DNA of 64,000 nt from Mycobacterium syngnathidarum (GTDB taxonomy: Bacteria; Actinomycetota; Actinomycetes; Mycobacteriales; Mycobacteriaceae), in contig NZ_MLCL01000032.1 in the NCBI RefSeq assembly GCF_001942625.1, positions 97,465 through 161,464 on the forward strand. Direction: 5' to 3'. Position 1 is the first letter of the stretch, and every line of letters begins with the position of its first letter. Below, one piece after another: positions 952 to 15,230 of this stretch. The translations under genes and the position numbers were made by a program. The notes below the pieces were generated by a model, which did no database searches, had not been told where the DNA came from, and saw nothing but the letters and a program-made list of their open reading frames with translations.

Positions 952-1404
952 TCATGGGTCGATGTGGTCGGAGTGCGGTGTGTGACCCGTTCCCTGCTCG
1001 ATCACCCGGCGCAGCAGGGCGCGCAGCTGCTCCTGTTCCTGATCACTGAGGACACCGAACACCCGATCATGGGCGGCGACCGCATCGGCCACCACCGCCG
1101 ATGCCACCGCGCGGCCTTCATCGGTCAGGAAGACCTGCAGGATCCGACCGTGCTGGGGATCCTGCTTGCGCTCGATCAACCCACGCTTCTCCAGCGCGGT
1201 GAGCGCCAGTTGCACACCTTGCGGGGTGATCAGCAGACGACGGGCCAGCTCCGCACCGGACAGACCGGGTTGGTTGCTCAACTGACGCAGCACACCGATC
1301 TGGGCAGTGGTGACACCGTGCTCTTTCACCGATTCGTTGACTTCGGTGAGCGAGAAGTAGAAGGCCTGCTTGAGCCACCACAGGGTGTTCTCGTTCAGAT
1401 CCAT
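952..1404 (-). CDS. MarR-family transcriptional regulator
   Basis: Winged-helix repressor of the MarR family, 150 residues. The central helix-turn-helix and wing read from about residue 35 to 105 (TAQIGVLRQL, LSGAELARRL, LTALEKRGLIERKQD). The start chosen is the ATG giving MDLNEN because it follows a good ribosome site (GGAGACGAGG); a longer frame to 1464 adds an arginine-rich stretch with no family match. It lies convergent to the desaturase and in the same direction as the amidohydrolase upstream, about 75 bases away, so it may control either the desaturase or the catabolic genes. The target is not known. Confidence 0.88.
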   Translation of the reverse strand: MDLNENTLWWLKQAFYFSLTEVNESVKEHGVTTAQIGVLRQLSNQPGLSGAELARRLLITPQGVQLALTALEKRGLIERKQDPQHGRILQVFLTDEGRAVASAVVADAVAAHDRVFGVLSDQEQEQLRALLRRVIEQGTGHTPHSDHIDP

Positions 1405-1480
1405 CCTCGTCTCCTGCCACACGCGCCGACTCGACGCTAGCGCACCGCGGCCGGTTCGCGGCACTCACCTGGCCCGCAGG

Positions 1481-2740
1481 TCACGGGCCTTTGTAGACCA
1501 CTCCGTCCTTCATCACGAACCGGACATCGAGCATCGTCGCGATGTCGGTGCTCGGATCACCCGCGACGGCGATGACGTCGGCCAGATATCCAGGGGTGAG
1601 CTGACCCAGCTCGTCAGCCGCGTCCACGAGATCCGCCGACACCGTCGTCGGGGCCTGCAAGGCCTGCATCGGGGTCATGCCGCGTTCGACGAGCGCGCAC
1701 AACTCCTTGGCGTTGTCGCCGTGTGGAACCGCGGGCGCATCGGTGCCGCACGCGATGCGTACGCCGGCCGCAATGGCCTTGGGCAGCATGGCTTTCGCCC
1801 GGGGGAACACCTCGAGTGCCTTCTTGCGCAGCTCGGGCGCGATGCGGTCGATGGCCATCGCGTCGGTCAGATACGTGGTGGATACCAGGAAGGTGCCGTG
1901 GTCGGCCATCATCTGGATCGTCTCGTCGCTGGCCAGGAAGCCGTGTTCGATGCAGTCGATGCCGGCCCGGATGCATGCCTGGACGGCGGTGTCCCCGACC
2001 GCGTGCGCGGCCACCTTGACCCCGGCGCGGTGCGCCTCGTCGGCGATGGCAGCGAACTCGGCATCGGAGTATTGCTGGGCACCGGGCGCGGTGCTGTGCG
2101 ACATCACACCACCGGAGGCCGACACCTTGATGAGCTTGGCGCCGTGGCGAATCTGATAGCGCACACACGCGATGACGTCCGGCACTCCGTTGGCGATGCC
2201 CTCGGCGATCGACAGCGGCATGATCCCGGGGGCCAGCCGTTGGAAGACCGTGGGGTCGAGATGTCCGCCGTACGGCGTGACTGCGTGTCCCGCCGGGTAG
2301 ATGCGGGGGCCGATATGCCAGCCCTGGTCGATGGCCCGCTGCAGCGCGACGTCGAGCAGGTAGCCGCCGGTCTTGACCATCAGGCCAAGGTTGCGGACGG
2401 TGGTGAACCCAGCCTCCAGCGTGGTGCGCGCGTTCACCGCGCCGCGCAGCGTGCGGTAGGCGGGATCGTCCTGCACGCCGTGCATCGGCGTCGGTAGTCC
2501 ACCCGGGTTTCCCGGCCCGCCGATCAGCAGGTTGAGCTCCATGTCCATCAACCCGGGCAGCAGGGTGGCGTCACCCAGGTCGATGACCGTGGCCGAATCC
2601 GGCAGTGGCCCTTCGGGATTGATGGCCGTGATCCGGTTTCCCTCGATGACGAGAACGGCCGGAGACCGGACCTCGCCGGCGGTCACGTCCACCCAACGGG
2701 CGGCACGCAGGACCGTAGTGGGGTTCGCTACCGGCGTCAC
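1481..2740 (-). CDS. Amidohydrolase-family protein (imidazolonepropionase-like) with altered HxH motif
   Basis: A TIM-barrel amidohydrolase of about 419 residues. Visible family landmarks are the N-terminal beta-sandwich leading to LLPGLMD, the lysine of KLIKVSASGG that would carry the carbamate, histidines in VAAHAVGD and CIEHGFL, and the catalytic aspartate in CGTDAP. The normal metal-binding HxH after PGLxD is absent: the sequence reads PGLMDMELNLL, so Glu and Asn occupy the two His positions. The GTG start at 2740 overlaps the stop of the upstream small gene (GTGA), which indicates translational coupling with the Rieske operon. The substrate is unknown; hydrolysis of an imide, lactam or ester in a ring-degradation route is an inference from context only. 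Confidence 0.82.
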   Translation of the reverse strand: MTPVANPTTVLRAARWVDVTAGEVRSPAVLVIEGNRITAINPEGPLPDSATVIDLGDATLLPGLMDMELNLLIGGPGNPGGLPTPMHGVQDDPAYRTLRGAVNARTTLEAGFTTVRNLGLMVKTGGYLLDVALQRAIDQGWHIGPRIYPAGHAVTPYGGHLDPTVFQRLAPGIMPLSIAEGIANGVPDVIACVRYQIRHGAKLIKVSASGGVMSHSTAPGAQQYSDAEFAAIADEAHRAGVKVAAHAVGDTAVQACIRAGIDCIEHGFLASDETIQMMADHGTFLVSTTYLTDAMAIDRIAPELRKKALEVFPRAKAMLPKAIAAGVRIACGTDAPAVPHGDNAKELCALVERGMTPMQALQAPTTVSADLVDAADELGQLTPGYLADVIAVAGDPSTDIATMLDVRFVMKDGVVYKGP

Positions 2741-3066
2741 GGCACCGGCTCGGCGACGCAGTCCAGCGACGTGGCACCGGAATCGGGTACCCGCGGCTGC
2801 TTCCAGCACTCGACCGGGAAGGACACCGTCACCATCGAATACAGCAGGTGCATCAGGTTGAGGACATCCTCGGGCATGTCATCGAGGCTGAATTTGTCGC
2901 AGAAGCTGATCGCTTCCTCGGCCCGCGGCGTGATCGCGTCGTAGAACGCCTGCATCTCGGTCATGGTGGAACCCAACCGCTTGGCGTAGCGCTGCGGCTC
3001 ACTGGACAGGCACCAGTCCGAAAACCGTTCCAGATCGGCGAATTCGGCCGGGAGTTTGATGCTCAT
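2737..3066 (-). CDS. Small conserved-type protein coupled to Rieske oxygenase
   Basis: Soluble 109-residue protein that I do not recognise. It is acidic and helical-looking, with no signal peptide, membrane segment or metal motif. Its ATG lies four bases after the stop of the Rieske gene and its stop overlaps the GTG start of the amidohydrolase, so the three genes form one tight operon. It is too short and lacks the fold signature of a normal ring-hydroxylating dioxygenase beta subunit. A role as an accessory or assembly partner of the oxygenase is inference from position. Confidence 0.72.
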   Translation of the reverse strand: MSIKLPAEFADLERFSDWCLSSEPQRYAKRLGSTMTEMQAFYDAITPRAEEAISFCDKFSLDDMPEDVLNLMHLLYSMVTVSFPVECWKQPRVPDSGATSLDCVAEPVP

Positions 3067-3070
3067 CAGT

Positions 3071-4336
3071 TCACACTCCTGCGGTGTTGCGCTGGTAGTC
3101 CTCGATCCAGGATGCGGTCTCCTTGTGCAGGTGCCGCAGCAGGATCTCCTGATCGCAGAGCAGGAACTCGTCGACCACTCGAGTCTCGATGGAGGTCTGC
3201 GTCGCTTCCAGCGTGTTGGCATCCTGCAGGCCGTACTCCTTGAAGGACACGGCGGCCAGTTCCTGGGCCAACCGCTCCCGTGGGGTGCGCGGCTGCGGAA
3301 AATACAGCGTGCACTCAAACGTGTGGGTGTTGAACGAGGTCGGCCAGTAGTGATACGTCAGATACCAGCCCTGGCCCCAGAACAACATGACGAAGTTGGG
3401 GAACAGTTGGAAGGAGTCCAACCCCCACGGATCGCACTTGGCGGGGTTGAGGCCGGCCGGCATCTCGCCGAGGTCCGGTTTGTCCCACGGGCCGAAAAGC
3501 CCGCTCTGACAGATGTCTTCCATGGGCTTGCGCATCTCGTCGGGCATTTCCCAGGCCCGCACCCCGGAAGTGCTCACCAATCGGTGCGGTCCTTCGATCC
3601 GGTAGTGCGGTGCCTCGAATCCCGACTCGGCGGCGGCCTTCGAATAGGCGGTCGGTGACTGGTTCGCGTGCAGGATGGGTGCGTGGTAGAACTCCTGGAA
3701 GGCATCCATGTAGAGCTTCCAATTCGCTTTCACCTCAGAGCGATAGGTGAATCGCGAGGTCATCTTGTCGAACGGGTAGCCCTCCAGGCCGGTGATCATC
3801 GGGCCGAGGAACTCGCGCAGTGACTGCTCGGGTGTTTTGGCGAAGTTGACGAAGATGAACCCTTCCCACACCTCGCAGTGCACCGGCACCAGGCCGTAGC
3901 GGCTCTTGTCGAGGTCGAAGAACTCGGCTTCCTGTTGAACGAAGGTCAGCTCGCCGTCCAGGTCGTAGCGCCAAGCGTGGTATTTGCAGGTGAACTGCCG
4001 GCATACCCCGCTGGTCTCCTCCAGCGGCATGTCGTCCCACACCAGCTTGTTGCCCCGGTGGCGACAGACGTTGTGGAAGGCCTTGACCTCGCCCGACTTG
4101 CCGCGGACCACGATGATGGAGGTGTTGGCGGCCTTCATCTCCCGGGTGAAGTAGCTGCCTTTACGCGGAAGCTGTTCCACCCGGCCCACATTCAGCCAGG
4201 CACGCTTGAAGATCGCCTTGCGTTCCAGTTCATAGATCTCGGGACTGATCGAGTCTTCATACGACACCGGGCCGGTGCCCAACTCGGGGTAGTGCTGAGT
4301 CCAGCTGCCTTCAGCCGGCTTGGGAAACCGAGCCAT
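3071..4336 (-). CDS. Rieske non-heme iron oxygenase, alpha subunit
   Basis: Ring-hydroxylating or demethylating oxygenase terminal component, 421 residues. The N-terminal Rieske domain (about residues 45-160) has the 2Fe-2S ligands CRH and CKYH. The C-terminal catalytic domain carries the mononuclear iron motif DAFQEFYHAPILH with the expected Asp and two His. It needs an electron-transfer partner (ferredoxin and reductase), and none is encoded nearby. It heads an operon with a small protein and an amidohydrolase, and is divergent from an aldehyde dehydrogenase and a second amidohydrolase. The set suggests breakdown of an aromatic or alicyclic compound, but the substrate cannot be named. Confidence 0.93.
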   Translation of the reverse strand: MARFPKPAEGSWTQHYPELGTGPVSYEDSISPEIYELERKAIFKRAWLNVGRVEQLPRKGSYFTREMKAANTSIIVVRGKSGEVKAFHNVCRHRGNKLVWDDMPLEETSGVCRQFTCKYHAWRYDLDGELTFVQQEAEFFDLDKSRYGLVPVHCEVWEGFIFVNFAKTPEQSLREFLGPMITGLEGYPFDKMTSRFTYRSEVKANWKLYMDAFQEFYHAPILHANQSPTAYSKAAAESGFEAPHYRIEGPHRLVSTSGVRAWEMPDEMRKPMEDICQSGLFGPWDKPDLGEMPAGLNPAKCDPWGLDSFQLFPNFVMLFWGQGWYLTYHYWPTSFNTHTFECTLYFPQPRTPRERLAQELAAVSFKEYGLQDANTLEATQTSIETRVVDEFLLCDQEILLRHLHKETASWIEDYQRNTAGV

Positions 4337-4481
4337 GCCCGCTCCTCTGCGATGTGATTCGGCCGGCGGTGCACACGATGGGCTGCGGCTGCCGGCCAGG
4401 GCTTCAAATCGACCGTAGACGCCGGTTCCGTCAATGACAAGTAGTTGATACTCTGGGCTGGACTGAGGCGGGAGGATCCGA
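4337..4481. promoter_or_regulatory. Divergent promoter region, Rieske operon / aldehyde dehydrogenase
   Basis: The 145-base gap between two divergent starts must hold both promoters. On the plus strand GATACT at 4447-4452 is a plausible -10 element, and GGAGGATCCGA at 4471-4481 is the ribosome site for the aldehyde dehydrogenase. I see no clear operator palindrome. Confidence 0.4.
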
Positions 4482-5942
4482 ATGGATCAGCATCTTGGGG
4501 AGTTCCTCGGAGTCGAGGCGGACTGGTCGTCCAGTGGCGACCCTGCCGAAACGATCGAGGTCATCTCACCGCACACCGAGCAGCCCATCGCTCGAGTGGT
4601 GGCGAGCCGGCCGGCCGATGTGGATGCCGCGGTCTCGGCCGCGCGCACGGCGATCGACCAGGGCCCGTGGCCCCGGCTCGACCCGGCCGAGCGCATCGCG
4701 GCGGTACGTCGTCTCGCCGAGCTGTACACACAGCGACGAAGCGAGATGGCGCAGTTGATCTCGGCGCAGATCGGCGCGCCGATCAGTTTCGCCGAGCGCG
4801 CACAGGTCGGGTTGCCGACGATGATGATGTCGGCGTTCTGTGATCTCGCCGAAAACTACCCGTGGCACGAGGCCCGGCGCGGCTTCTTCGGTTCGGACGT
4901 CCGTATCAGCAAGAGTCCGGTCGGTGTCGTCGCAGCCGTCGTGCCCTGGAACATGCCGCAGTTCCTGATCGTCACCAAGCTGGTGCCCGCGCTGCTGGCA
5001 GGCTGTGCGGTGGTACTCAAACCGGCGCCGGAATCACCGTTGGACGCACTGTTTCTGGCGGAGATACTCAAGGAGGTCGGCCTGCCGGACGGCGTCGTCA
5101 CCGTCGTACCGGGGGATGCCGGCGCCGGCGCGCACCTGGTGGGCCACCCCGGCGTCGACAAGGTCTCCTTCACCGGCTCCAGCGCTGCAGGCCGGGCTGT
5201 GGCCGCCGCGGCGGCAGCCAACCTGACCAAGGTGAGCCTGGAGCTGGGCGGCAAGTCGGCGGCGATCGTGCTCGACGACGCCGACCCGGAAACCGTTGCG
5301 GCCGGGGTCCGTTCGGCCAGCCTGTCCAACAGCGGGCAGATCTGCAATGCACTGACCCGGATCCTGGTACCGGCTTCGCGTGAGCACGAGTTCGTGGACG
5401 CGTTGGCGGCCCGGATGGGTGCGATCGTCGTCGGGGATCCCGCCGACCCGGCGACCGAGCTGGGACCGCTCGTGTCGCGGCGGCAGCAGCAGCGCGTCCG
5501 CGACTACATCGATCTCGGCCGGCGTGAGGGGGCCAGGCTGGTCTGTGGGGGGACGGAGATGCCCGACGGCCTCGACACCGGCTGGTACGTGCGGCCGACC
5601 CTGTTTGCCAGGGCTGACAACGCGATGCGCATCGCTCGTGAGGAGATCTTCGGACCGGTACTCACCGTGATCAGCTATCGCGATGAGGACGACGCCATCG
5701 CGATCGCCAACGACTCCGACTACGGGCTGGCCGGCTCGGTATGGACGGCGGACACCGACCGCGGGATAAGCGTCGCCGAACGTGTACAAACCGGCACTTT
5801 CGGGGTAAACCAGGGGTACACAATGGATCCGTTTGCACCGTTCGGCGGCATCAAGGACAGCGGATATGGCCGGGAACTCGGCCGCGAAGGACTCGACGGC
5901 TACCTCGAGACCAAATCCATTGCCGTCGCAACCGCACGTTGA
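4482..5942 (+). CDS. Aldehyde dehydrogenase family protein
   Basis: NAD(P)-dependent aldehyde dehydrogenase, 486 residues, the usual family length. Seen are the NAD-binding FTGSSAAG loop, the general-base glutamate in LELGGKSA, the nucleophilic cysteine in NSGQICNA and the C-terminal EEIFGPVL and PFGGIKDSGYGRE motifs. The start is fixed by GGAGGATCCGA directly upstream. The next gene, an amidohydrolase, starts 10 bases after its stop, so the two are co-transcribed. It probably oxidises an aldehyde made in the neighbouring oxygenase route; which aldehyde is unknown. Confidence 0.95.
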   Translation: MDQHLGEFLGVEADWSSSGDPAETIEVISPHTEQPIARVVASRPADVDAAVSAARTAIDQGPWPRLDPAERIAAVRRLAELYTQRRSEMAQLISAQIGAPISFAERAQVGLPTMMMSAFCDLAENYPWHEARRGFFGSDVRISKSPVGVVAAVVPWNMPQFLIVTKLVPALLAGCAVVLKPAPESPLDALFLAEILKEVGLPDGVVTVVPGDAGAGAHLVGHPGVDKVSFTGSSAAGRAVAAAAAANLTKVSLELGGKSAAIVLDDADPETVAAGVRSASLSNSGQICNALTRILVPASREHEFVDALAARMGAIVVGDPADPATELGPLVSRRQQQRVRDYIDLGRREGARLVCGGTEMPDGLDTGWYVRPTLFARADNAMRIAREEIFGPVLTVISYRDEDDAIAIANDSDYGLAGSVWTADTDRGISVAERVQTGTFGVNQGYTMDPFAPFGGIKDSGYGRELGREGLDGYLETKSIAVATAR

Positions 5943-5952
5943 GGGGACCAAC

Positions 5953-7095
5953 ATGACAGTCACAACCTCGCCCAGGATTCCCGCCGCCGAACGCATCGCG
6001 GTGCGTTGCGTCGACTCCGATGTGCACCCGGTGCCCCGTCGGGGGGTGCTGGGGCAGTACATCCCGGAACCATGGCGCAGCAGATACTTCGGCAGTCACG
6101 ACGTCGGGGAGTTGATCTACTACGACGCGCCGGATTACGCCCACGCCTACGCCATGCGCACCGATACTTTCCCCACCGACGGCGAGTTCGCCGGCAGCGA
6201 TCCTGATCTGGCCTTCCGGCAACTGATCATGGAGGCCGGCGCCGACATCGCGGTCCTGGAGCCCGCGGCGTACTCGGCCCACATTCCCGAGGCCAACCAC
6301 GCGATGAACTGTGCACTGAACGACTGGCAGGCCAATCACTGGCTGGACAGTCACAACAACTGGCATGAGCGGTGGCGCGGTTCCATCTGCCTGGCCGTTG
6401 AAGCACCGGAACTCGGGGCACAGGAGGTCGAACGGTGGGCCGGCCATCCCTTCATGGCACAGATTCTGATCAAGGCCGAGCCGCGCCCGTCATGGGGTGA
6501 TCCGAAGTACGACCCGATCTGGGCCGCGGCCACCAAGCACGACATCACGGTGAGCTGTCACCTGTCCCGGGGTGAATACGACGAGCTGCCATTGCCGCCG
6601 GTCGGCTTGCCCAGCTACAACCACGATTTCATGGTCACGTACTCGCTGTTGGCGGCCAATCAGGTGATGAGCCTGATCTTCGACGGGGTCTTCGACCGGT
6701 TTCCGACACTGCGCATTGTGTTCGTCGAGCACGCCTTCACCTGGATCCTGCCGCTGATGTGGCGCATGGACGCCATCTACGAAGCCCGCAAGTCCTGGAT
6801 GGACATCAAGCGCAAACCATCCGAGTACGTCAAGGACCACATCAAGTTCACCACCCAGCCGCTGGACTATCCCGAGGACAAGACCGAACTGTCGCGGGCC
6901 TTCGAGTGGATGGAGTGCGACAAGATCCTGCTGTTCTCGTCGGATTACCCGCACTGGACCTTTGACGATCCCCGTTGGCTGGTCAAGCATCTGCCCGAGC
7001 ATGCCCGCGAGAATGTGATGTTCCGCAACGGGATTCAGACCTACAAGCTGCCCGAGACGGTTCCTGTGCTCGAAGGGCAGGTCCGGGTTTTCTAG
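5953..7095 (+). CDS. Amidohydrolase 2 family metal-dependent hydrolase (ACMSD-like)
   Basis: TIM-barrel hydrolase or decarboxylase of 380 residues, related to aminocarboxymuconate-semialdehyde decarboxylase. The N-terminal metal site is a DxH (DSDVHPVP), a barrel histidine is in VSCHLSRG, another in FVEHAF, and the catalytic aspartate is in SSDYPHW. The ATG follows GAGGGGACCAAC, 10 bases after the aldehyde dehydrogenase stop. Members of this family work on ring-cleavage products and on aromatic carboxylates. The link to the divergent Rieske oxygenase is by position. Confidence 0.9.
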   Translation: MTVTTSPRIPAAERIAVRCVDSDVHPVPRRGVLGQYIPEPWRSRYFGSHDVGELIYYDAPDYAHAYAMRTDTFPTDGEFAGSDPDLAFRQLIMEAGADIAVLEPAAYSAHIPEANHAMNCALNDWQANHWLDSHNNWHERWRGSICLAVEAPELGAQEVERWAGHPFMAQILIKAEPRPSWGDPKYDPIWAAATKHDITVSCHLSRGEYDELPLPPVGLPSYNHDFMVTYSLLAANQVMSLIFDGVFDRFPTLRIVFVEHAFTWILPLMWRMDAIYEARKSWMDIKRKPSEYVKDHIKFTTQPLDYPEDKTELSRAFEWMECDKILLFSSDYPHWTFDDPRWLVKHLPEHARENVMFRNGIQTYKLPETVPVLEGQVRVF

Positions 7096-7100
7096 GGCAC

Positions 7101-8135
7101 TCAGGCGAACTGAGCCGCTACCGGGGGCAGGTCGAGCGTCGATCGTATGCCCGGACGCGCGGCACATACCGCGGCGACGACGTTCACCGCACGGTTGGCG
7201 GTGTATCCCGGTGTGGTCTCGGCCATCCGTTCCAGGGGTATCGGCATCCGCAGGGTCACCTCCAGCGGGGCGTCGCCGGCCACTGACACATGCCAGCCGG
7301 TTTCCCGAACCTCTCAGGCCGGCTCGAGGTCGGCGGCGCAGTACCAGGTGGCGCGGAAGGTGAGCAGCTCCTGCCCGTCACGCATTCCGGCGACGGTGAT
7401 ACGTTGTGCGGCAACGGTTCCAGCTTTGAGGGTGCCCGCGGCGATGTGAACTTCCTGTGGGGTGGCGGCCAATTCGCCACGGGCGGTCACCTGCTGCAGC
7501 GGCAGCCCGACCGCGTCGGCCAGCAGGAGCAGTGAGGGCCCGAAACTGGCCGCCAGATAGTCGGCGCGGAACTGGTCGAACGGTGCCAGGTCACGGCCGA
7601 ACCCCATGACGTCGAACAACAACTCGGGGGAGTGGCGCTTGGACAGGTCGGCGTTTTCCTCGATGACGAGGCCATCGAGTCGTCGTTGGGTCGAGGTGAG
7701 AACCAGCGGGAGCGCCTCGGAGATGAAGCCGGGACTGCTGCCGGTGCTGTGTACCGACGCACCTCCGGCCCGGCAGGCGGTTTCCACCCGGTCCCGTAGC
7801 TGCGGGTCCATGCTCGCGGGGTGATGGAACTGACCGCAGGTTGCCACCACGTTGATGCCCGACTCCAGCAGTCGGCACACATCGTCGACGTCGAAAGTGC
7901 GCGGCATGTAGAGCACGCAGTCCGGAGACAGTGCCAGCACGTCCTCGATGCGGCCGGTGGCCCGCACACCGATCGGTGTCACGCCGCACAACTCACCAGC
8001 GTCGCGCCCGATCTTGTCCGCGCCGTAGACATGAACCCCGGCCAGGGTCATCGCGGGATGGTTGATGACCTCTCGCAGGGCCTTGAGACCGATGTTCCCG
8101 GTGGCCCACTGCACCACCTTCAGGTCAGCGCTCAT
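7101..8135 (-). pseudogene. DapB-N-domain (dihydrodipicolinate reductase-like) protein interrupted by in-frame TGA
   Basis: Rossmann-fold protein of the group annotated in mycobacteria as dihydrodipicolinate reductase N-terminus domain proteins. The nucleotide-binding start reads VVQWATGNIGLKAL. The frame stops at a TGA (7314-7316) after 273 codons, at LEPA. Exactly the same frame then stays open for a further 70 codons, from EVRETGWHV to LDLPPVAAQFA, ending at 7101. From memory, intact relatives are about 345 residues, matching the 344 codons obtained if TGA is read as a sense codon such as TGG. The ATG overlaps the stop of the molybdopterin oxidoreductase gene, so the two are coupled. Options are a true nonsense mutation, a sequencing error, or a truncated but working protein. 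Confidence 0.82.
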
Positions 8136-10162
8136 CGGGCGGGGTGCAGACTCACGGGCACACCGGAATAGCGCACCATGCCGGTCACCAAGTCGACGTC
8201 GTCCCTGTCGGTCAGTTCGTTCACATTTGCCTCCACATGGCCATGCGGCACCGAGACTGCGCCGCGTCGGATCCCTGGGTCGAGTTTCGCCCGTCCGGTC
8301 ATCTCACCGTGGGCGTTACGCACCGTCACGGCCGCGCCGTCGGCGACGCCGGCGGCGGCCCCGTCATCGGGGTTGATCAGCACATCGGCGGCATCGCCGA
8401 GAAAGTCCAACTGCGCGTTGAGCCGTCGCATCTGCCGACGCGGGATCAGAACCAGTGCGGCCGTATCTTTCAGGTCCGCCAACCGGTCGACGAGAATCTG
8501 CGGCGCCACTCGCCATCCGCCCATGCGCTCGATGTGCCGTTCCACCCAGGGCGCGGGCAGTTCGTGGCCGGCATCCATCCAGCCGGTCGCAGTCAGCTCT
8601 TCGAAGTCGCAGCGGGCCGCTGCCGTCAGCCCGGCGAGCACTGTGTCGTCGGGCTGACGGGGATCGGCGATCTCGTGGCCGAGTCGTCGCCCGAGTTCGG
8701 CCAGAAACCACCACATCGATCGGCGGTCACCGACGGCGGGCACCACAGCCGGCGTGTGCTGGGCGGACACCCGCGAACTGAGCGCATCCCAGATCGTGAT
8801 GTCCGGGCGTTCCAGCTGATCCTTGGTCGGCAACACGTGGGTCGACATCGCCACCGTTTCGTTGGCGATGATCTCGGTGGTGGCCAGCACCTCGAGCTTG
8901 GCCAGCGCCGGTCTGAGCGCCGTGCTGTTCGGGAACGAGGTGAGCAGGCTGCCGCCGAGGTTGATCAGCGCGCGGATGTTTCCCGCCTCGATCTCGTCGG
9001 GCAATGTTGCACAGGGCCATTCGTTCATGAACGACTGCGTCTCGGGCCGGCTGCGCGGGCCCGGGCCGAACGATCCGTCCGCCGCAGAGATGGGCAGTTC
9101 GAACGTCTCGAGCTGATAGGAGAAGCCGGGATGGAACCAGAATCCGCCGGGCCGGTTCATCGAGCCGGTCAGGATCATCAGGACCCAGGCGAGCCATTGG
9201 GTGACGTTGGCCTTGTCCGCGGTCATGGTGACCCCGGTGCCCGTTTCGATAGCGATCCTTCGTGAAGCCAGCACCGCGTCCCGGAAACCCCGCAGCTGCT
9301 CGGGCGCGAGGTCGGACAATTCGGCGGTGCGCTCGAGCGTGAACGGTTCGACGGCAGCGGTCAACCGATCGCAGTCTTGCACCGGCACATCGGGATCGAC
9401 TCCGCGCAACAGGATTTCGCGCACCAGATAGGCCAGCACCGCATGGTCGGTGCCGGGGCGCGGCGCCAGGTGGCCGGTTGCCAGCCGTGCGGTCTCGGTG
9501 CGGCGTGGATCGATGACCCACACCTGGCCGCGGTCGGCGATCCCGCGGACCGTGCCGGTCGGATTGGGTACGGCGATGGCATGGCCGTGCGAGATCACCG
9601 GATTCGTGCCGATGAAGACCATGAAGTCGACGTTGTCATAGTCGGGCCGGCCGGACAGGCCGACGAATCCGCCCACCAGATCCGAGATCAGCGGCTTGGC
9701 GGTGCCGTCGATCGTCAAGGGGCTGAACCTGGCCGGGGTGCCGATGGCCGCATGTAACGCTTCTGCCACTCGGGTGCCGGTGGCGTCCATGCCCACGCCC
9801 GTTCCGAAGAAGATGCCCACCGACGCGGGCCCGTGTCGGTCGATGATGCCTTTGAGGCGGGTCCCGAGATCGTCGAGACACCTTGTCCAGGAGGTGTCCT
9901 GCAGTCTGCCGTCGATGCGCAACTGCGGCCGCTCGATTCGGTCGGGATGGTGGTGCATCTGCGGTAACGCGCGGCCTTTCGGGCAGGCATAGCCCTTCGA
10001 CAACGGGTGGTCCCGATCGCCGCGAACCCGGGTCACGGTGTCGCCCTCGACCTCGACGAGGATCCCGCAAACCGAGGTGCAGATGCGGCAGAAGCTCTTG
10101 ACGGTCCGCACCGCGCCGCGCGTGGTGGTCGCCGACGGGCCGGGTCCTGTGGTCCAGGTCAC
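8132..10162 (-). CDS. Molybdopterin-dependent oxidoreductase (formate dehydrogenase / DMSO reductase family)
   Basis: A bis-MGD oxidoreductase of 676 residues. The N-terminal 4Fe-4S site reads CRICTSVC followed by a fourth cysteine in YACPKG. The rest covers the catalytic MopB domain and a C-terminal MGD-binding domain (ALVLIPRRQMRRLNAQ, and VPHGHVEANVN near the end). There is no Tat signal, so it should act in the cytoplasm. I chose the GTG at 10162 because a near-consensus promoter places transcription start on that very codon; the frame continues to 10228 without a better site. It is coupled to the DapB-like gene downstream and divergent from a TetR gene. The substrate is unknown. Confidence 0.9.
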   Translation of the reverse strand: MTWTTGPGPSATTTRGAVRTVKSFCRICTSVCGILVEVEGDTVTRVRGDRDHPLSKGYACPKGRALPQMHHHPDRIERPQLRIDGRLQDTSWTRCLDDLGTRLKGIIDRHGPASVGIFFGTGVGMDATGTRVAEALHAAIGTPARFSPLTIDGTAKPLISDLVGGFVGLSGRPDYDNVDFMVFIGTNPVISHGHAIAVPNPTGTVRGIADRGQVWVIDPRRTETARLATGHLAPRPGTDHAVLAYLVREILLRGVDPDVPVQDCDRLTAAVEPFTLERTAELSDLAPEQLRGFRDAVLASRRIAIETGTGVTMTADKANVTQWLAWVLMILTGSMNRPGGFWFHPGFSYQLETFELPISAADGSFGPGPRSRPETQSFMNEWPCATLPDEIEAGNIRALINLGGSLLTSFPNSTALRPALAKLEVLATTEIIANETVAMSTHVLPTKDQLERPDITIWDALSSRVSAQHTPAVVPAVGDRRSMWWFLAELGRRLGHEIADPRQPDDTVLAGLTAAARCDFEELTATGWMDAGHELPAPWVERHIERMGGWRVAPQILVDRLADLKDTAALVLIPRRQMRRLNAQLDFLGDAADVLINPDDGAAAGVADGAAVTVRNAHGEMTGRAKLDPGIRRGAVSVPHGHVEANVNELTDRDDVDLVTGMVRYSGVPVSLHPAR

Positions 10163-10169
10163 CGAACGG

Positions 10170-10206
10170 AATGTAGTCAGTGGCAACAATGCTGTCAATG
10201 GCAACA
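10170..10206 (-). promoter_or_regulatory. Promoter of oxidoreductase gene with tandem operator repeats
   Basis: On the minus strand a -35 TTGACA (10193-10198), a 17-base spacer and a -10 TACATT (10170-10175) stand seven bases before the GTG at 10162, which predicts a leaderless mRNA. Two direct copies of GTCArTGGCAACA (10176-10188 and 10194-10206), 18 bases apart, cover the spacer and -35. They are good candidates for the binding site of the TetR protein encoded divergently. On the plus strand TAGGGT at 10214-10219 could be the -10 for that TetR gene, whose ATG follows eight bases later. Confidence 0.7.
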
Positions 10207-10226
10207 TTCTTGCTAGGGTGCGTGGC

Positions 10227-10847
10227 ATGTCGACCGGGCGCTACCACCACGGCGATCTCAGGGCGGCCTTGCTTGCGCAGGCCGGCCAGACGCTGCGCGT
10301 GTCCGGTGTCGACGGTCTGTCGCTGCGCGAACTGGCGCGCGCGGTCGGGGTCAGCCACGGTGCACCCCGCAGGCACTTCGACGACAAGGCGGCACTGCTG
10401 GAGGCGCTTGTCGCCGACGGGTTTCATCGGCTGCACCGGGCGCTGGAAGACGCGGTACAGCCCGGTCATTCGGTGGGCGCCGGGCTGGAAAAGATTGCCA
10501 CCACCTACATTCGATTCGCCACCGACAATCCGGCGCTGCTCGAACTGATGGCGAGCAGTCGCTACCTCGCCGAGGCTCCCGATGCCCTGACCGAGGCGCG
10601 TGATGCCGCGTTCGCCCCGGTGCGAACGCTTGTCGAGCGGGGGCAGGGCGCCGGGGAACTGGCGGCCGGCGACGTGCGTCGGGTGGGCACTTTGATATTT
10701 GCCACCGTGCACGGGCTGGCCACCATGGCCACCAATCGGATGATCGACCCACTCGACCACGACCTGATCGTCGACGCGGTCAACTCGCTGCTCACCGGAC
10801 TGGGTTCGGTGCAGTGGCGGGCCGATCGGCGGGCTACCGAACCCTAG
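10227..10847 (+). CDS. TetR-family transcriptional regulator (divergent from molybdopterin oxidoreductase)
   Basis: A 206-residue TetR repressor. The N-terminal helix-turn-helix spans roughly residues 10-55 ([21 protein letters not shown]), followed by an all-helical ligand domain. It is divergent from the molybdopterin oxidoreductase with only 64 bases between the start codons, a gap filled by two direct repeats that overlap the oxidoreductase promoter. That arrangement suggests it represses the oxidoreductase operon and itself. Its stop overlaps that of the next, convergent TetR gene by four bases. Confidence 0.9.
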
Positions 10848-11446
10848 GGCAACTTGATCGCCGACACGTACATGTCGACGATCGGGCGGTACAGGTCGAC
10901 GTCGTCGAGTTCGCTGCCCAGCACCACCGAGTCGCTGGTGGCGATGAGGACCTGAGCGAACGTGGGCGCCGGAATCCGCAACGTTGCGCCCCAGCGTTCC
11001 ATCCCGGTGGCGATGAACTTGCCCAGTGCCTCGACGACTTCGGCGCGCTTGGTGGTCACTCGTTCCCGCGCATCGGGGTTGCGGAGTAGATAGAGCGTGA
11101 ACTCGTGCCCCAACGCGGCATGTTCGGCACCGCGGTCCCGGCTGAGTTGGCGCCAGCGCTTGGCGATTTCGTCCAGCTCCGCTTCGCCGATCTGCGTCGC
11201 GCTCGACATCACCTCAGAGAAGTTCTCGAAATAGCGCCGCCAGTAGCGGTCGCTGACGGCCAGGAACAGGTCTTCCTTGGTGGTGAAGTGCTTGTAGATG
11301 GCGCCCTTCGTGTAGCCGGCGGCACGGGCGATGTCATCGAGAGTGGCTGGCGCAAAGCCTTTTTCGGCGAACACCTCCTCGGCGGCATCGAGCAGCACCG
11401 AGCGGGTGTGCTCGAGTCTGCGTTCCCGGGTCCAGCGTTCCGCCAT
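10844..11446 (-). CDS. TetR-family transcriptional regulator (divergent from AveC-like operon)
   Basis: A 200-residue TetR repressor. The helix-turn-helix is clear near residues 15-60 ([20 protein letters not shown], then [10 protein letters not shown]). It is divergent from the AveC-like/MoxR/VWA operon, with a 123-base gap that holds a promoter and a CCCGTG/CACGGG inverted repeat. It is thus the likely regulator of that operon. The ligand is unknown. Confidence 0.9.
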
Positions 11447-11479: not shown

Positions 11480-11516
11480 TTGGAATCTCAGATACCCGTG
11501 AGTATATTTGCACGGG
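11480..11516 (+). promoter_or_regulatory. Promoter and operator of the AveC-like operon
   Basis: TTGGAA (11480-11485), a 17-base spacer and TATATT (11503-11508) form a good sigma-A type promoter pointing at the AveC-like gene. CCCGTG (11495-11500) and CACGGG (11511-11516) form an inverted repeat that brackets the -10. This is where a TetR repressor, such as the one encoded divergently, could block transcription. Confidence 0.6.
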
Positions 11517-11569: not shown

Positions 11570-12739
11570 ATGAGTGATCTGTCCAAGAAGTCCGTCGTCA
11601 CCGAACCGGTCAGCGGGATCGCTGACCTAGAAAAGCCAGGTCCGTCGTCATCGAACGCGTTCAAGATCTGGGCGACCGTCGGCACCGTCTTCCTGGCATA
11701 CACGCTGTACGTGTTCATCCGCTGGGTTACCGGACCGTACTTCGAGCCGGTGTCGGGCGGCCCGACCGAGCCGCCGCTGTACATGAAGATCCCGCTGATC
11801 GCCAACGCCGTCGTGCTCTGGGTGGGTCTGCCAGTTGCCCTGTGGTTCTTCATTATTCGCCCGTGGGTTCGCGAACGTCGGATCACCCTCGACGGCATGC
11901 TGTTGGTGTCGATGGGCCTGATGATGTTCCAGGATCCGATGCTCAACTACTACAGCACCTGGTGCACGTACAACGCGTGGCTGTTCAACCAGGGCTCATG
12001 GGCGCCGCACATCCCGGGCTGGGTGGCCCACGAGGAACCCGGGCATACCGTGCCCGAGCCGCTGCTGACCAACGTCCCCGGTTATGCCTACGGTGTGCTG
12101 CTGCTGACGATCGTCGGATGCGCCATCATGCGCAAGATCAAGAACCGGTGGCCCGGTATCAGCACCCTGCGCCTCATCCTGGTCACCTACGGCATCGCGA
12201 TTGTCTTCGATTTCGTGATGGAAGCCCTGGTCATGCTGCCGATCGGGTTCTACTCCTACCCCGGCGCCATCCAATCGCTGTCGTTCAATGCCGGCACCTA
12301 CTACCAGTGGCCGATCTACGAGGGATTCATGTGGGGCGGTGTCCAGGCGGCGCTGTGCTGCCTGCGCTTCTTCACCGATGATCGCGGTCGCACGGTCGTC
12401 GAACGCGGAATCGACCAGATCCGTGGGGGTTTCGTCAAGCAACAGTTCATCCGTTTCCTGGCGATCTTCGGCGGGGTCAGCGCATGCTTCTTCCTGTTCT
12501 ACAACGTCCCGGCGACCTGGCTCGGCATGCACGGCGATGCGTGGCCCGAGGATGTACAGAAGCGCTCCTACTTCAACCCCGGCATCTGTGGCGAGGGCAC
12601 CGACCGGCCATGCCCCAACCCAGAGCTGCCGTTGCCGACGAACCGTTCGGGCTACATCAACCACGAGGGTCAACTGGTGCTCCCGGAAGGGGCGACGATC
12701 CCGCCCGCCGTGCCGATCGTTCAGGGCGAAACGCGATGA
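11570..12739 (+). CDS. AveC-family (spirocyclase-like) integral membrane protein
   Basis: A 389-residue membrane protein that I match to the AveC family, named after the spirocyclase of avermectin biosynthesis; mycobacterial members have no established role. I count about seven hydrophobic segments, the first near residue 35 (TVFLAYTLYVFIRW) and the last near residue 310 (FGGVSACFFLFYN). Conserved-looking loops are rich in Trp, Tyr, Asn and Pro (FQDPMLNYYSTWCTYNAW). The ATG follows AAGGGGAAACC. Its stop overlaps the ATG of the MoxR-type ATPase gene (ATGA). The family call is from memory of sequence, not a search. Confidence 0.78.
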   Translation: MSDLSKKSVVTEPVSGIADLEKPGPSSSNAFKIWATVGTVFLAYTLYVFIRWVTGPYFEPVSGGPTEPPLYMKIPLIANAVVLWVGLPVALWFFIIRPWVRERRITLDGMLLVSMGLMMFQDPMLNYYSTWCTYNAWLFNQGSWAPHIPGWVAHEEPGHTVPEPLLTNVPGYAYGVLLLTIVGCAIMRKIKNRWPGISTLRLILVTYGIAIVFDFVMEALVMLPIGFYSYPGAIQSLSFNAGTYYQWPIYEGFMWGGVQAALCCLRFFTDDRGRTVVERGIDQIRGGFVKQQFIRFLAIFGGVSACFFLFYNVPATWLGMHGDAWPEDVQKRSYFNPGICGEGTDRPCPNPELPLPTNRSGYINHEGQLVLPEGATIPPAVPIVQGETR

Positions 12740-13557
12740 CTGTCAGTAAGTTTCGTCCGGTCACCGCACCGGAGTCCCCGCCGCCGTTCTACCGTCCCTC
12801 CGGGAAGGAGGTCGAAACCTTCCGGGCGGCCGCCCGCCGTGGCGCGCCGGTGCTGCTCAAGGGCCCTACCGGATGTGGCAAAACGCGCTTCGTCGAGGCG
12901 ATGGCCCACGATCTCGGCCGTGAGCTCATCACCGTCGCCGGTCACGAGGACATGACGTCGGCGGATCTGGTGGGCCGCTTCCTGCTCAAGGGCGGTGAAA
13001 CCGTCTGGGTAGACGGGCCGTTGACCAGAGCGGTGCGCGACGGCGCCATCTGCTATCTCGACGAGATCGTGGAGGCGCGTCAGGACACCACGGTGGTCAT
13101 CCATCCGCTCGCCGACCACCGGCGCGAATTACCGATCGACCGTCTCGGCACCACCTTGCCCGCGGCCCCGGGATTTCAGCTGGTGATCTCCTACAACCCC
13201 GGTTACCAGAGCATCCTCAAGAGCCTCAAAGATTCGACCCGGCAACGCTTCGTCGCGATCAGCCTCGACTTCCCGGCTGCCGAGATCGAGACCGAGATCG
13301 TGGCGGCGGAGGCCGGGATCGACGCCTCCACCGCTGCATCGCTGGTGGTGCTGGGCAACGCCGTCCGGGATCTCGACGGCTCGGCACTGAGCGAGGTCGC
13401 CTCGACCCGCATGCTGATCCTCGCCGGCGGCCTCGTCGCCGAAGGACTGAGCTTGCGCGACGCCGTTCAGTCCGCCGTCGTGGAGGTGCTCTCCGACGAT
13501 CCCGATGTGATTCGGGGCCTCGGCGAACTCGCCGACGCGGTCCTGCCCCCACCGTGA
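12736..13557 (+). CDS. MoxR/CbbQ/NorQ-type AAA+ ATPase
   Basis: An AAA+ ATPase of 273 residues of the CbbQ/NirQ/NorQ group. Walker A is GPTGCGKT (about residues 37-44), Walker B is ICYLDEI (about 105-111), and the FxVISYNPGYQ region is the sensor 1 stretch typical of this group. In known systems these ATPases work with a VWA partner to remodel or activate a metal enzyme or large complex (CbbQ-CbbO on Rubisco, NorQ-NorD on nitric oxide reductase). Here the gene is coupled on both sides, to the AveC-like protein (ATGA overlap) and to the VWA gene (GTGA overlap). Confidence 0.93.
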   Translation: MTVSKFRPVTAPESPPPFYRPSGKEVETFRAAARRGAPVLLKGPTGCGKTRFVEAMAHDLGRELITVAGHEDMTSADLVGRFLLKGGETVWVDGPLTRAVRDGAICYLDEIVEARQDTTVVIHPLADHRRELPIDRLGTTLPAAPGFQLVISYNPGYQSILKSLKDSTRQRFVAISLDFPAAEIETEIVAAEAGIDASTAASLVVLGNAVRDLDGSALSEVASTRMLILAGGLVAEGLSLRDAVQSAVVEVLSDDPDVIRGLGELADAVLPPP

Positions 13558-15230
13558 GCACCGGCCCGCAGCCGCACCACTTCCGTTTTCTGGCCGGATA
13601 TCTCGCGGGGCGACCCGTCGATGTTGCGGTGGCCCGCGCAGGCGAGCCCGCCTACACCGACGGGCGGGTCGTCTTCGTGTCGGCAGGCGCACATCCCGAC
13701 AAGCAGCGCCGCGAAGTGCTGGTCCAGAGCGCGCTTCTCGGAGCCGGAAGCCTCGACGGCCGGTACGTCAAGCGCCTGCGGGCCCGGCCTTCGCCGGCCG
13801 GCCGCTACCTGATGCTCGAAGGGCACCGGGTCTTGACCGAACTCGGTTCGACGATTCCCTTGGCGGCGGCGGTCTGCCCCGGCACAGTTCCGCAATCGGA
13901 CAGTTCCGAGCAGTCGTTGCAGATCGCCCTGGGCAAGTCCAAGCTCGACCCACCACCGGATTGGTTCGGAACGATCAAACCGGGCACCCTGATCCGCACC
14001 CGCGCCGAATCAGGCTCGCAGGCCACTGCTTCCGACCTCCGGATGAACTTCGAGCAGACGTCGGAGCTGGATGACGACGACGGCGACGACGGGCCGGCAG
14101 AGAAGAGCTGGATCCTCAAACTGTTCGAGGTTCCCATCGGAACGCAGGCGCCCGCGAAATTCCTGCGCACGCTGTTCGGTAGCGCCCGTTCCTCCGGAAG
14201 CGAGGGGGCGGGCGGCGAACTGGGAGTCGCCTCGATCCGGCGGACGTCACGTGTCGGCATGAATGCTCGTCCGGTTCCGACCCCGATTCACTTCACCGGC
14301 GCCGAGAAGCCGGGTGCGGCAATCGCGGTGGGTGGTGCCAGGTACCCGGAATGGGACGTTTTCGGTGACCGGTATCGGGAGAACTGGTGCCGCGTAATCG
14401 ATTTCCCCGTCACGGCAGCGGTGGATGTTTCAGCTGCCGGTGTGACGCGCGACGTCGTACTGCGACGCAGACTGGCTCGAGTGGGCCTCGGTCCCAAAGT
14501 GTTGCGTGCCCGCGCCGACGGCGACGACGTGGACACAGAGGCCTTGATCGACCTGTTCGTCGACCTCCGGTCAGGGTATTCACCGCCCGAGCATGTGTAC
14601 ACCAAGCGCCGCAAGCTTGCCCGCAACCTCGGTGTGCTCGTCCTCGTCGACGCTTCAGGATCGGCGACCGACGCCGACGGAGAGGGCCTTGCCGTACACG
14701 ATCACCAGCGCCGCGCGGCCGCCACGCTCGCCATGACACTCGAAGAGCTCGGCGACCGCGTCGCGATCTACGGGTTTCGTTCCCAGGGCCGGCACGCCGT
14801 GCACCTACCTGCCGTCAAGACCTTCGGGCAACGATTCGGTGCCGGCGCGCGGGCCCGGCTGAGCCGGCTGCAGCCGTTCGGCTACACGCGGCTCGGGGCA
14901 GGAATCCGGGGCGCCGGCGAGATCCTCAAAAGCCAAGCGGGAACGCCTCATCGGTTGCTGGTCGTGCTCTCCGACGGCTACCCATATGACGACGGCTACG
15001 AGGGTCGCTACGCGCAGGCGGACGCTGCCAAGGCACTCGAGGAATTACGTGCGGACGGGGTGGCCTGCCTGTGTCTGTCCATCGGGGCGACAGGCGACGC
15101 CGATTCGCTCGATCGGGTGTTCGGCGCCGCCAGCCATGCCAGCGCCGCGACGCTGGGCGAGCTGAGCCCGCGGATGGATGAGTTGTTCATGTCGGCCCTG
15201 CGAGAGCTGGCTGCACCCAGGCGGCGGTGA
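13554..15230 (+). CDS. VWA-domain protein, CbbO/NorD-like
   Basis: A 558-residue protein with a C-terminal von Willebrand A domain (about residues 360-545). Its MIDAS motif is DASGS, followed by conserved GFRSQGRHAV and VLSDGYPYDDGYEG segments. The N-terminal half is acidic and variable, with an Asp-rich stretch near residue 165. CbbO and NorD proteins have this layout and act as adaptors between the AAA+ ring and its substrate. The GTG start overlaps the ATPase stop. With the AveC-like protein as the only other member of the operon, that membrane protein is the obvious candidate client. Confidence 0.88.
   Translation: MSTGPQPHHFRFLAGYLAGRPVDVAVARAGEPAYTDGRVVFVSAGAHPDKQRREVLVQSALLGAGSLDGRYVKRLRARPSPAGRYLMLEGHRVLTELGSTIPLAAAVCPGTVPQSDSSEQSLQIALGKSKLDPPPDWFGTIKPGTLIRTRAESGSQATASDLRMNFEQTSELDDDDGDDGPAEKSWILKLFEVPIGTQAPAKFLRTLFGSARSSGSEGAGGELGVASIRRTSRVGMNARPVPTPIHFTGAEKPGAAIAVGGARYPEWDVFGDRYRENWCRVIDFPVTAAVDVSAAGVTRDVVLRRRLARVGLGPKVLRARADGDDVDTEALIDLFVDLRSGYSPPEHVYTKRRKLARNLGVLVLVDASGSATDADGEGLAVHDHQRRAAATLAMTLEELGDRVAIYGFRSQGRHAVHLPAVKTFGQRFGAGARARLSRLQPFGYTRLGAGIRGAGEILKSQAGTPHRLLVVLSDGYPYDDGYEGRYAQADAAKALEELRADGVACLCLSIGATGDADSLDRVFGAASHASAATLGELSPRMDELFMSALRELAAPRRR

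What the first reader, a model, noticed from the sequence alone, without database searches (positions are those of the whole stretch)
11570..15230. AveC-family membrane protein coupled to a CbbQ/NorQ ATPase and CbbO/NorD VWA protein
Three genes with four-base start/stop overlaps encode an AveC-like seven-segment membrane protein, a MoxR-type AAA+ ATPase and a VWA adaptor. ATPase/VWA pairs of this type are known to activate a specific client enzyme encoded with them (Rubisco, nitric oxide reductase). The only client candidate in this operon is the AveC-like protein. That would make it a chaperone-activated membrane enzyme, perhaps metal dependent, of unknown reaction. I know of no described system of this composition.
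Basis: partly seen in the sequence, partly recalled or inferred. Interest (0 to 1): 0.75.

Follow-up and report, generated by a model that had tools for sequence, protein, structure and literature searches.

The report
Membrane protein with its own chaperone
A mycobacterial membrane protein related to an enzyme of avermectin synthesis is encoded together with a two-part ATP-driven machine like the one that matures nitric oxide reductase, and this machine carries an extra domain seen almost only next to such membrane proteins, which suggests a new kind of protein that needs a dedicated activator.

Summary
Window 11570-15230 encodes an AveC-like 7-TM protein (PF17198, 322 bits), a NorQ-type AAA+ ATPase and a NorD-type VWA protein, with ATGA and GTGA overlaps. 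A divergent TetR gene and a conserved palindrome-like site complete the module. The trio sits together in 65 of 80 related loci.

New here: the VWA protein's N-terminal domain (NTD) is not detectably NorD's. In 150 Mycobacteriales-order genomes it occurs in 12, all with AveC. In 396 Actinomycetota genomes it occurs in the same 11 that have AveC over the cut-off. 20 of 21 places lie within 3.5 kb of an AveC gene, across divergent AveC subfamilies. The eight NorQ/NorD-like pairs examined without it do not adjoin AveC. The site occurs only before AveC (86 of 86 in loci, 21 of 21 in whole genomes).

Best reading: a NorQD-like remodeller re-targeted to AveC-like membrane proteins. That AveC is the client is inferred; metal insertion is untested. 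Against strict dependence: of 12 genomes whose AveC lacks an adjacent NTD, 3 have none at all, and 20 of 42 AveC places are unlinked. New variant of a known kind.

The parts
10844..11446 (-). TetR-family regulator, divergent from the operon (200 aa)
   Evidence: TetR_N 70.4 bits; relatives beside most related AveC genes at about 74-94% identity
11490..11508 (+). Conserved palindrome-like site AGATACCCGTGAGTATATT in the TetR/AveC intergenic region, probable operator
   Evidence: 1 match in the window, 0.00 expected; 86 of 86 sites in 81 sequences begin 46-130 bp before an AveC profile match; 21 of 21 sites in 18 whole genomes are in front of AveC (places compared by coordinates). Binding by this TetR is inferred.
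11570..12739 (+). AveC-like 7-TM membrane protein (389 aa), proposed client
   Evidence: PF17198 321.9 bits; AF2 model with TM helices 30-54, 70-102, 107-126, 165-193, 199-222, 249-267, 288-319; K+R 4/4/6 in loops of one side against 0/0/0 in those of the other
12377..12382 (+). D270-D271 in the presumed cytoplasmic loop 3 of AveC, proposed docking acid for the VWA MIDAS
   Evidence: Both D in 32 of 32 NTD-linked rows, D271 less constant in three other groups (24 rows, 10 of them of unknown gene context); the role is inferred from NorB D220/E222 (PMC9976466 passages)
12736..13557 (+). NorQ-type MoxR AAA+ ATPase (273 aa)
   Evidence: AAA_5 + CbbQ_C; best PDB sequence NorQ 9qhd, 330.8 bits; 60% identical to Roseibium NorQ; Walker A GPTGCGKT, Walker B, SYNP, STRQR and ASTR present
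12973..13002 (+). Helix-2-insert motif GRFLLKGGET (NorD-finger contact motif GRXLL/IXXXXT of NorQ)
   Evidence: motif as given in PMC13036017 section 8
13554..15230 (+). NorD-type VWA adaptor (558 aa)
13554..14003 (+). N-terminal domain (NTD) of the VWA protein, residues 1-150, the AveC-associated domain
   Evidence: Ordered in the model at about 6-150; its profile (with part of the linker) found in 12 of 150 and 11 of 396 genomes, all AveC+; no match to NorD N-terminal regions of two proteins
14004..14342 (+). Low-confidence linker, residues 151-263, in the position of the NorD linker
   Evidence: pLDDT under 50 for 151-263
14649..14975 (+). MIDAS motif: DASGS (366-370), T445, D474
   Evidence: D366, S368, S370, T445, D474 invariant in 37 aligned rows

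Best explanation
TetR-AveC-NorQ-NorD is a self-contained module in which a NorQ/NorD-type AAA+/VWA machine has been re-targeted from nitric oxide reductase to an AveC-like seven-helix membrane protein. Proposed working: the TetR protein sits on the palindrome at 11490-11508 until a small, probably hydrophobic compound releases it. AveC, the ATPase and the adaptor are then made together. The adaptor plugs the ATPase ring with its VWA finger and holds AveC by two points, its special N-terminal domain and its MIDAS metal, the latter probably on the acidic pair D270-D271 at the cytoplasmic end of helix 6. ATP hydrolysis twists the VWA domain, stretches the linker and opens or reshapes AveC, so that it becomes active on the outer face of the membrane. 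Shown: gene order, families, motifs, fold of the VWA part, the tie between NTD and AveC, and the tie between the site and AveC. Inferred: AveC as client, topology, docking sites, TetR binding, the nature of activation (conformational or cofactor insertion), ligand and reaction.
For: Trio in 65 of 80 loci, AveC-NTD adjacency in 66 of 80. NTD in 12 of 150 genomes, all AveC+, and in 11 of 396 genomes, the same 11 that have AveC over the cut-off (nine of these 11 are also in the first sample). 20 of 21 NTD places within 3.5 kb of an AveC; the exception sits beside an ATPase open frame of only 114 aa. The tie holds for AveC proteins only 22-40% identical to the window's: a P450/aldehyde dehydrogenase operon type, a Nocardia trio and further actinobacteria. 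The eight NorQ/NorD-like pairs examined without the NTD do not adjoin AveC. Gene order equals norB-norQ-norD. NorQ and NorD functional motifs are present and the VWA part is modelled like NorD. Site only before AveC. No close NorB in 18 AveC+ genomes.
Against: No physical or functional datum. The AveC-NTD adjacency is missing in 14 of 80 loci. 13 of those 14 genomes were searched: 10 have an NTD somewhere and 3 have none; one of the ten holds only an ATPase beside AveC (L032) and another is a probably mixed MAG (L039). Type B AveC, the copies on L081 and L082 and several actinobacterial paralogues are unlinked; 20 of 42 AveC places are not within 4 kb of an NTD. So the family as a whole does not need the pair. 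Distance correlations between AveC and its neighbours are only moderate within A-type loci (r 0.38-0.58, 65 loci). Related genomes are not independent samples.
Confidence: 0.6

Rival explanations
1. The pair matures another enzyme of the surrounding catabolic genes, above all the mononuclear iron of the Rieske oxygenase encoded at 3074-4336, or a P450 in the second locus type. AveC would be a separate pathway step or a carrier.
For: A Rieske gene lies in 57 of 80 loci; NTD and Rieske together in 49. The second locus type holds P450, SDR and aldehyde dehydrogenase genes.
Against: NTD without Rieske in 17 of 80 loci and Rieske without NTD in 8 (loci cut by contig ends included); no hit to that Rieske protein in L058, L083, L093, L094, L116 or L120. 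AveC is the neighbour that the NTD loci of different types share. The site marks only AveC.
Confidence: 0.15
2. AveC, the ring and the adaptor form one membrane machine (for lipid or envelope remodelling, or transport), with AveC as anchor or receptor and not as a client enzyme.
Confidence: 0.15
3. The pair is an ordinary NorQD serving a nitric oxide reductase encoded elsewhere, and its place beside AveC is historical.
For: NorQ identity of 57-60% and source annotations naming NorD.
Against: 13 of 18 AveC+ genomes have no NorB match at E <= 1e-5; the other 5 show 28-30% identity in frames of 795-815 aa. The N-terminal domain is not detectably that of NorD.
Confidence: 0.05

Closest known systems
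[quoted passage not shown]
   Different: Client position taken by an AveC-like protein; N-terminal domain of the adaptor not detectably related; no haem-copper gene in the operon; a local TetR regulator
CbbQ/CbbO Rubisco activase
   Same: CbbQ_C family ATPase; CbbQ in PDB at 288.8 bits
   Different: Lower score than NorQ (330.8 bits); no Rubisco family among the profiled neighbours
AveC of avermectin biosynthesis (PF17198 founding member)
   Same: PF17198 over its full length
   Different: To my recollection the avermectin cluster has no MoxR/VWA genes; AveC acts there in spiroketalisation and dehydration (PMC13303154, passages); no direct comparison with AveC was run here
Other MoxR/VWA pairs (RavA-ViaA and the like)
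   Same: General AAA+/VWA pairing
   Different: Not compared here; titles and abstract starts seen in a search listing only; that they are not NorQ/CbbQ-type is recalled

Membership tests
AveC-like (PF17198) | Full-length match above the curated cut-off | tested here: met
   321.9 bits against 26.6, model 1-234 of 234
AveC-like (PF17198) | Spiroketal cyclisation or dehydration activity | not testable with these tools
   No biochemical data; family name only
NorQ/CbbQ-type MoxR ATPase | AAA_5 plus CbbQ_C domains with Walker A/B, sensor 1, arginine finger and sensor 2 | tested here: met
   (motif labels for SYNP, STRQR and ASTR are by analogy)
NorQ/CbbQ-type MoxR ATPase | H2i motif GRXLL/IXXXXT contacting the NorD finger | tested here: met
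   GRFLLKGGET, residues 80-89
NorD-type VWA adaptor | VWA domain with intact MIDAS (DxSxS-T-D) | tested here: met
   D366, S368, S370, T445, D474, invariant in 37 rows
NorD-type VWA adaptor | NorD-like VWA fold with finger | tested here: met
NorD proper (NOR-linked) | NorD N-terminal domain | tested here: inconclusive
   No profile match in either NorD locus and hhalign probability 0.1% against residues 1-340 of two NorD proteins; two sequences make a weak test, and distant kinship is not excluded
NorD proper (NOR-linked) | Encoded with norB/norC | tested here: not met
   Operon and profiled neighbours hold none; the window's own genome is not held
CbbO | Encoded with Rubisco | tested here: not met
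   No Rubisco family in the operon or among the profiled neighbours; the rest of the window was not profiled
Lycopene cyclase (PF18916) as AveC relative | Profile-profile similarity | tested here: inconclusive
   E 0.04, probability 1.3%, TM5-TM6 register
Insig (PF07281) as AveC relative | Shared fold | tested here: inconclusive

The most novel reading that the evidence does not exclude
AveC-like proteins of this clade are a new class of chaperone-dependent, possibly metal-containing membrane enzymes working on the outer face of the membrane. Their adaptor's N-terminal domain is a dedicated AveC-docking module, so that NorQD-type machines can be re-aimed at new membrane clients by exchanging one domain.
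Probability: 0.3. Interest if true: 0.8.

Novelty: new variant of a known kind. Interest (0 to 1): 0.62.

Why it matters
Few clients of MoxR/VWA machines are known, and how such a machine picks its client is open (general knowledge, recalled). Here the ATPase stays close to NorQ (57-60% identity) while the N-terminal domain of the adaptor is different and tracks another membrane protein. That gives a natural experiment on client choice. It also offers a testable idea on AveC itself: PMC13303154 (passages) says that structural work was held up by trouble with heterologous expression. A missing maturation factor is one possible cause, although the avermectin cluster is not known to me to hold this pair (recalled).

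Tried and rejected
AveC as a lycopene-cyclase relative: the C-terminal half looked alike by eye (TM5 acid, GxYxY, PxYE). hhalign placed it in that register but without significance; one search had used some wrong strands and is void. AveC profile against PDB sequences: no match at E <= 1. Foldseek against the PDB: none at E <= 0.001. A close cNOR NorB as the true client: not found in 18 genomes. Rieske oxygenase as client: weighed and kept as a rival. A type C AveC on plasmids: no match. On plasmids the VWA protein matched 256 records, none over 80% of its length, and all 30 listed rows begin at residue 229 or later, that is after the NTD. The INSIG family search did not complete, so Insig kinship was not tested by sequence; a paper search for MvINS gave nothing on point in its listing of 8 of 171. 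The second TetR gene (10038-10847) was not tested: its query had wrong coordinates (8 aa) and one search failed for stop codons. Co-evolution by distance correlation: r 0.82-0.85 between AveC and its partners over 77 loci, but 0.38-0.58 within 65 A-type loci and no species control, so it is not used as evidence. Literature searches for a description of the AveC-MoxR-VWA combination (open-licence PubMed Central only) listed none by title or abstract start; most of the listed papers were not opened.
Full report
OBSERVATION. The window is a 64 kb piece with 64-70% GC, by its best relatives a Mycolicibacterium chromosome near M. senegalense (AveC 92-93% identical in L001). Its own genome is not held. 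The three genes are as described, with ATGA and GTGA overlaps. Pfam gives AveC_like 321.9 bits, AAA_5 plus CbbQ_C, and VWA. No NCBIfam model reaches its cut-off on the three proteins; the ATPase's best is GvpN at 79.7 against 266.8 bits.

CONSERVATION OF THE MODULE. The genome scan found 162 relatives of AveC and kept the best 80. In 65 of these 80 loci AveC, ATPase and NTD adjoin on one strand; 66 of 80 have the AveC-NTD pair; 17 of 80 have more than one AveC, 10 of the 17 as TetR-AveC-TetR-AveC-ATPase-VWA. Hosts of the module include Mycobacteriaceae, Gordonia (L058), Nocardia (L073) and Actinomadura (L065).

THE AVEC-LINKED DOMAIN. Alignments of the VWA proteins showed that the C-terminal halves resemble NorD while the first part does not. 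A profile of the first part found no match in the two NorD loci, and hhalign against two NorD N-terminal regions gave probability 0.1%; with two sequences this is a weak test. A profile of this part (A6, 16 rows) was run against whole genomes without regard to AveC. Order sample: NTD in 12 of 150 genomes, 19 places. AveC occurs in 15 of 150 at E <= 0.001 and in 14 over the cut-off; all 12 NTD genomes are among the 14, and the two others are G040 (short type B AveC only) and G066 (27.1 bits, partial). Phylum sample: NTD in 11 of 396 genomes, AveC in 12 at E <= 0.001 and in 11 over the cut-off, the same 11. Nine of these 11 are also in the order sample, and genomes are related, so the Fisher value of 5e-16 for the order sample overstates the independence. 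Of 21 distinct NTD places 20 lie within 3.5 kb of an AveC. The exception, G092:C22, has an ATPase open frame of 114 aa and no AveC in the 20 kb fetched. In the opposite direction 22 of 42 AveC places are within 4 kb of an NTD; the 42 include three weak matches of 24-27 bits. Of 30 CbbQ_C places of at least 70 bits in the order sample 18 lie within 4 kb of an AveC; five weaker places were left out of that count. Eight NorQ/NorD-like pairs that lack the NTD (L123 and L124 nor operons, L125, L126, L129, L131, the first pair of L121, the second of L047) do not adjoin AveC; in L121 and L047 an AveC lies about 7 and 5 kb away.

SEVERAL AVEC SUBFAMILIES. Besides the window type (A), the NTD pair occurs with a type C AveC (22-25% identical to the window's) in an operon VWA-ATPase-Peripla_BP_6-AveC-SDR-P450-aldehyde dehydrogenase (L094); with a divergent AveC in Nocardia in the order AveC-ATPase-VWA (L093); and with AveC of two further actinobacteria (L116, L120), where the VWA gene follows AveC after 0.1-0.25 kb. 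In L116 the ATPase comes 1 kb after the VWA gene; in the genome of L120 the next ATPase match of this kind lies about 14 kb off (L122). In a tree of 63 AveC rows the C/Nocardia clade is linked in 9 of 9 rows, and the clade of A plus the two actinobacteria in 23 of 32; type B rows and L082 are unlinked, and the gene context of 10 database proteins is unknown. Several long branches make deep placements unsure. Either the tie is old and was lost often, or it arose at least twice.

REGULATION. The TetR-AveC gap holds a palindrome-like site whose core is invariant in 18 of 18 gaps aligned, chosen from the 81 available. The pattern AGATACYNNNNRGTATMTT occurs once in the window, 0.00 expected. In the window and 80 loci (1.55 Mb) all 86 exact sites lie within 250 bp before an AveC; 86 of 98 A-type AveC genes have one, and 10 of the other 12 have a site with one mismatch. 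In 18 whole genomes there are 21 sites in 17 genomes and none for the reversed control pattern. By coordinates all 21 are in front of AveC: 13 against places against loci. AveC genes without an adjacent pair also carry the site (for instance L041, L045, L046, L049, L066, L078). That this TetR binds it is inferred.

DOCKING CANDIDATE. In NorB the acidic residues D220 and E222, at the cytoplasmic end of a helix that bears iron ligands, are needed for iron insertion (PMC9976466, passages). In AveC the pair D270-D271 at the presumed cytoplasmic end of helix 6 is constant in the 32 linked rows. D271 is less constant in 24 other rows: 5 of type B, 8 actinobacterial unlinked rows, and 11 mostly Proteobacterial rows of which only L082's context was seen. 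Seven A-type rows without adjacent NTD were in no group. D270 alone is common in the other rows too. Helix 6 begins at the conserved Q246-P248-Y250-E251 stretch. The parallel is suggestive only.

AGAINST. 14 of 80 loci lack the AveC-NTD adjacency. Among these, L032 and L071 keep an ATPase or part of one. The genomes of 13 of the 14 were searched (not that of L071): 10 carry an NTD somewhere, L032's among them, and 3 carry none (G535, G541, G542). So of the 12 other than L032's, 9 have it elsewhere and 3 do not; drafts may be incomplete, and G536 (L039) is probably a mixed MAG. The one Proteobacterial locus seen (L082) and a Mycobacterium plasmid copy (L081) have no such genes within about 9 kb. 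Thus the pair cannot be needed by every AveC-like protein.

SURROUNDINGS. Upstream, 955-7092 holds MarR, amidohydrolase, a small protein, a Rieske oxygenase, aldehyde dehydrogenase and a second amidohydrolase-like gene (the amidohydrolase names are by eye). A Rieske gene is present in 57 of 80 loci. It suggests a catabolic neighbourhood, but it is neither constant nor marked by the site.

LITERATURE. PMC13036017 (abstract, passages, sections 8 and 9) gives the NorQD twisting model: finger in the pore, C-terminus on the post-sensor loop, N-domain and linker as levers. PMC9976466, PMC13303154, PMC5819568 and PMC13108547 were seen in passages only. No listed paper describes this combination by title or abstract start.

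VERDICT. A real, conserved and unusually specific module. It should work like NorQD on sequence and fold grounds; it is not NorD proper in its gene company, and its N-domain is not detectably NorD's. Client identity is likely but unproved, and metal dependence is open.

Noticed in passing
window 955-7092: Rieske oxygenase cluster (MarR, amidohydrolase-like, small protein, Rieske alpha subunit, aldehyde dehydrogenase, second amidohydrolase-like gene) upstream of the module; a Rieske gene is in 57 of 80 related loci.
   Followed up: partly
window 7314-10847: A block with a 2,4-diaminopentanoate-dehydrogenase-like gene, a molybdopterin oxidoreductase and (by eye) a TetR gene sits between the Rieske cluster and the module; the first two were matched at over 90% identity only in L004 among the 80 loci.
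   Followed up: no
L127 (G092:C22): Orphan VWA gene with the AveC-type N-terminal domain beside an ATPase open frame of 114 aa, no AveC within the 20 kb fetched; looks like a decayed copy.
   Followed up: partly
L094:3267-13260: Second AveC locus type: VWA, ATPase, a periplasmic-binding-protein-like gene, AveC, SDR, P450, aldehyde dehydrogenase, thiolase.
   Followed up: partly
L083:18649-19362, L090:4163-4864: Short AveC-like proteins of about 260 aa (type B) about 6 kb from the type C AveC, without their own ATPase/VWA pair.
   Followed up: partly
L115-L119 (G206): One unnamed actinobacterial genome of 3.5 Mb with six AveC-like genes, only one beside the VWA protein.
   Followed up: no
L126 (G026:C98): NorQ/NorD-like pair without the AveC-type domain in a genome without any PF17198 match; its neighbours were not identified.
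   Followed up: no
L039: MAG labelled Gammaproteobacteria holds a mycobacterial-type AveC (70% identical); its assembly also holds five CbbQ_C matches and two AveC-type NTDs and is probably mixed.
   Followed up: no
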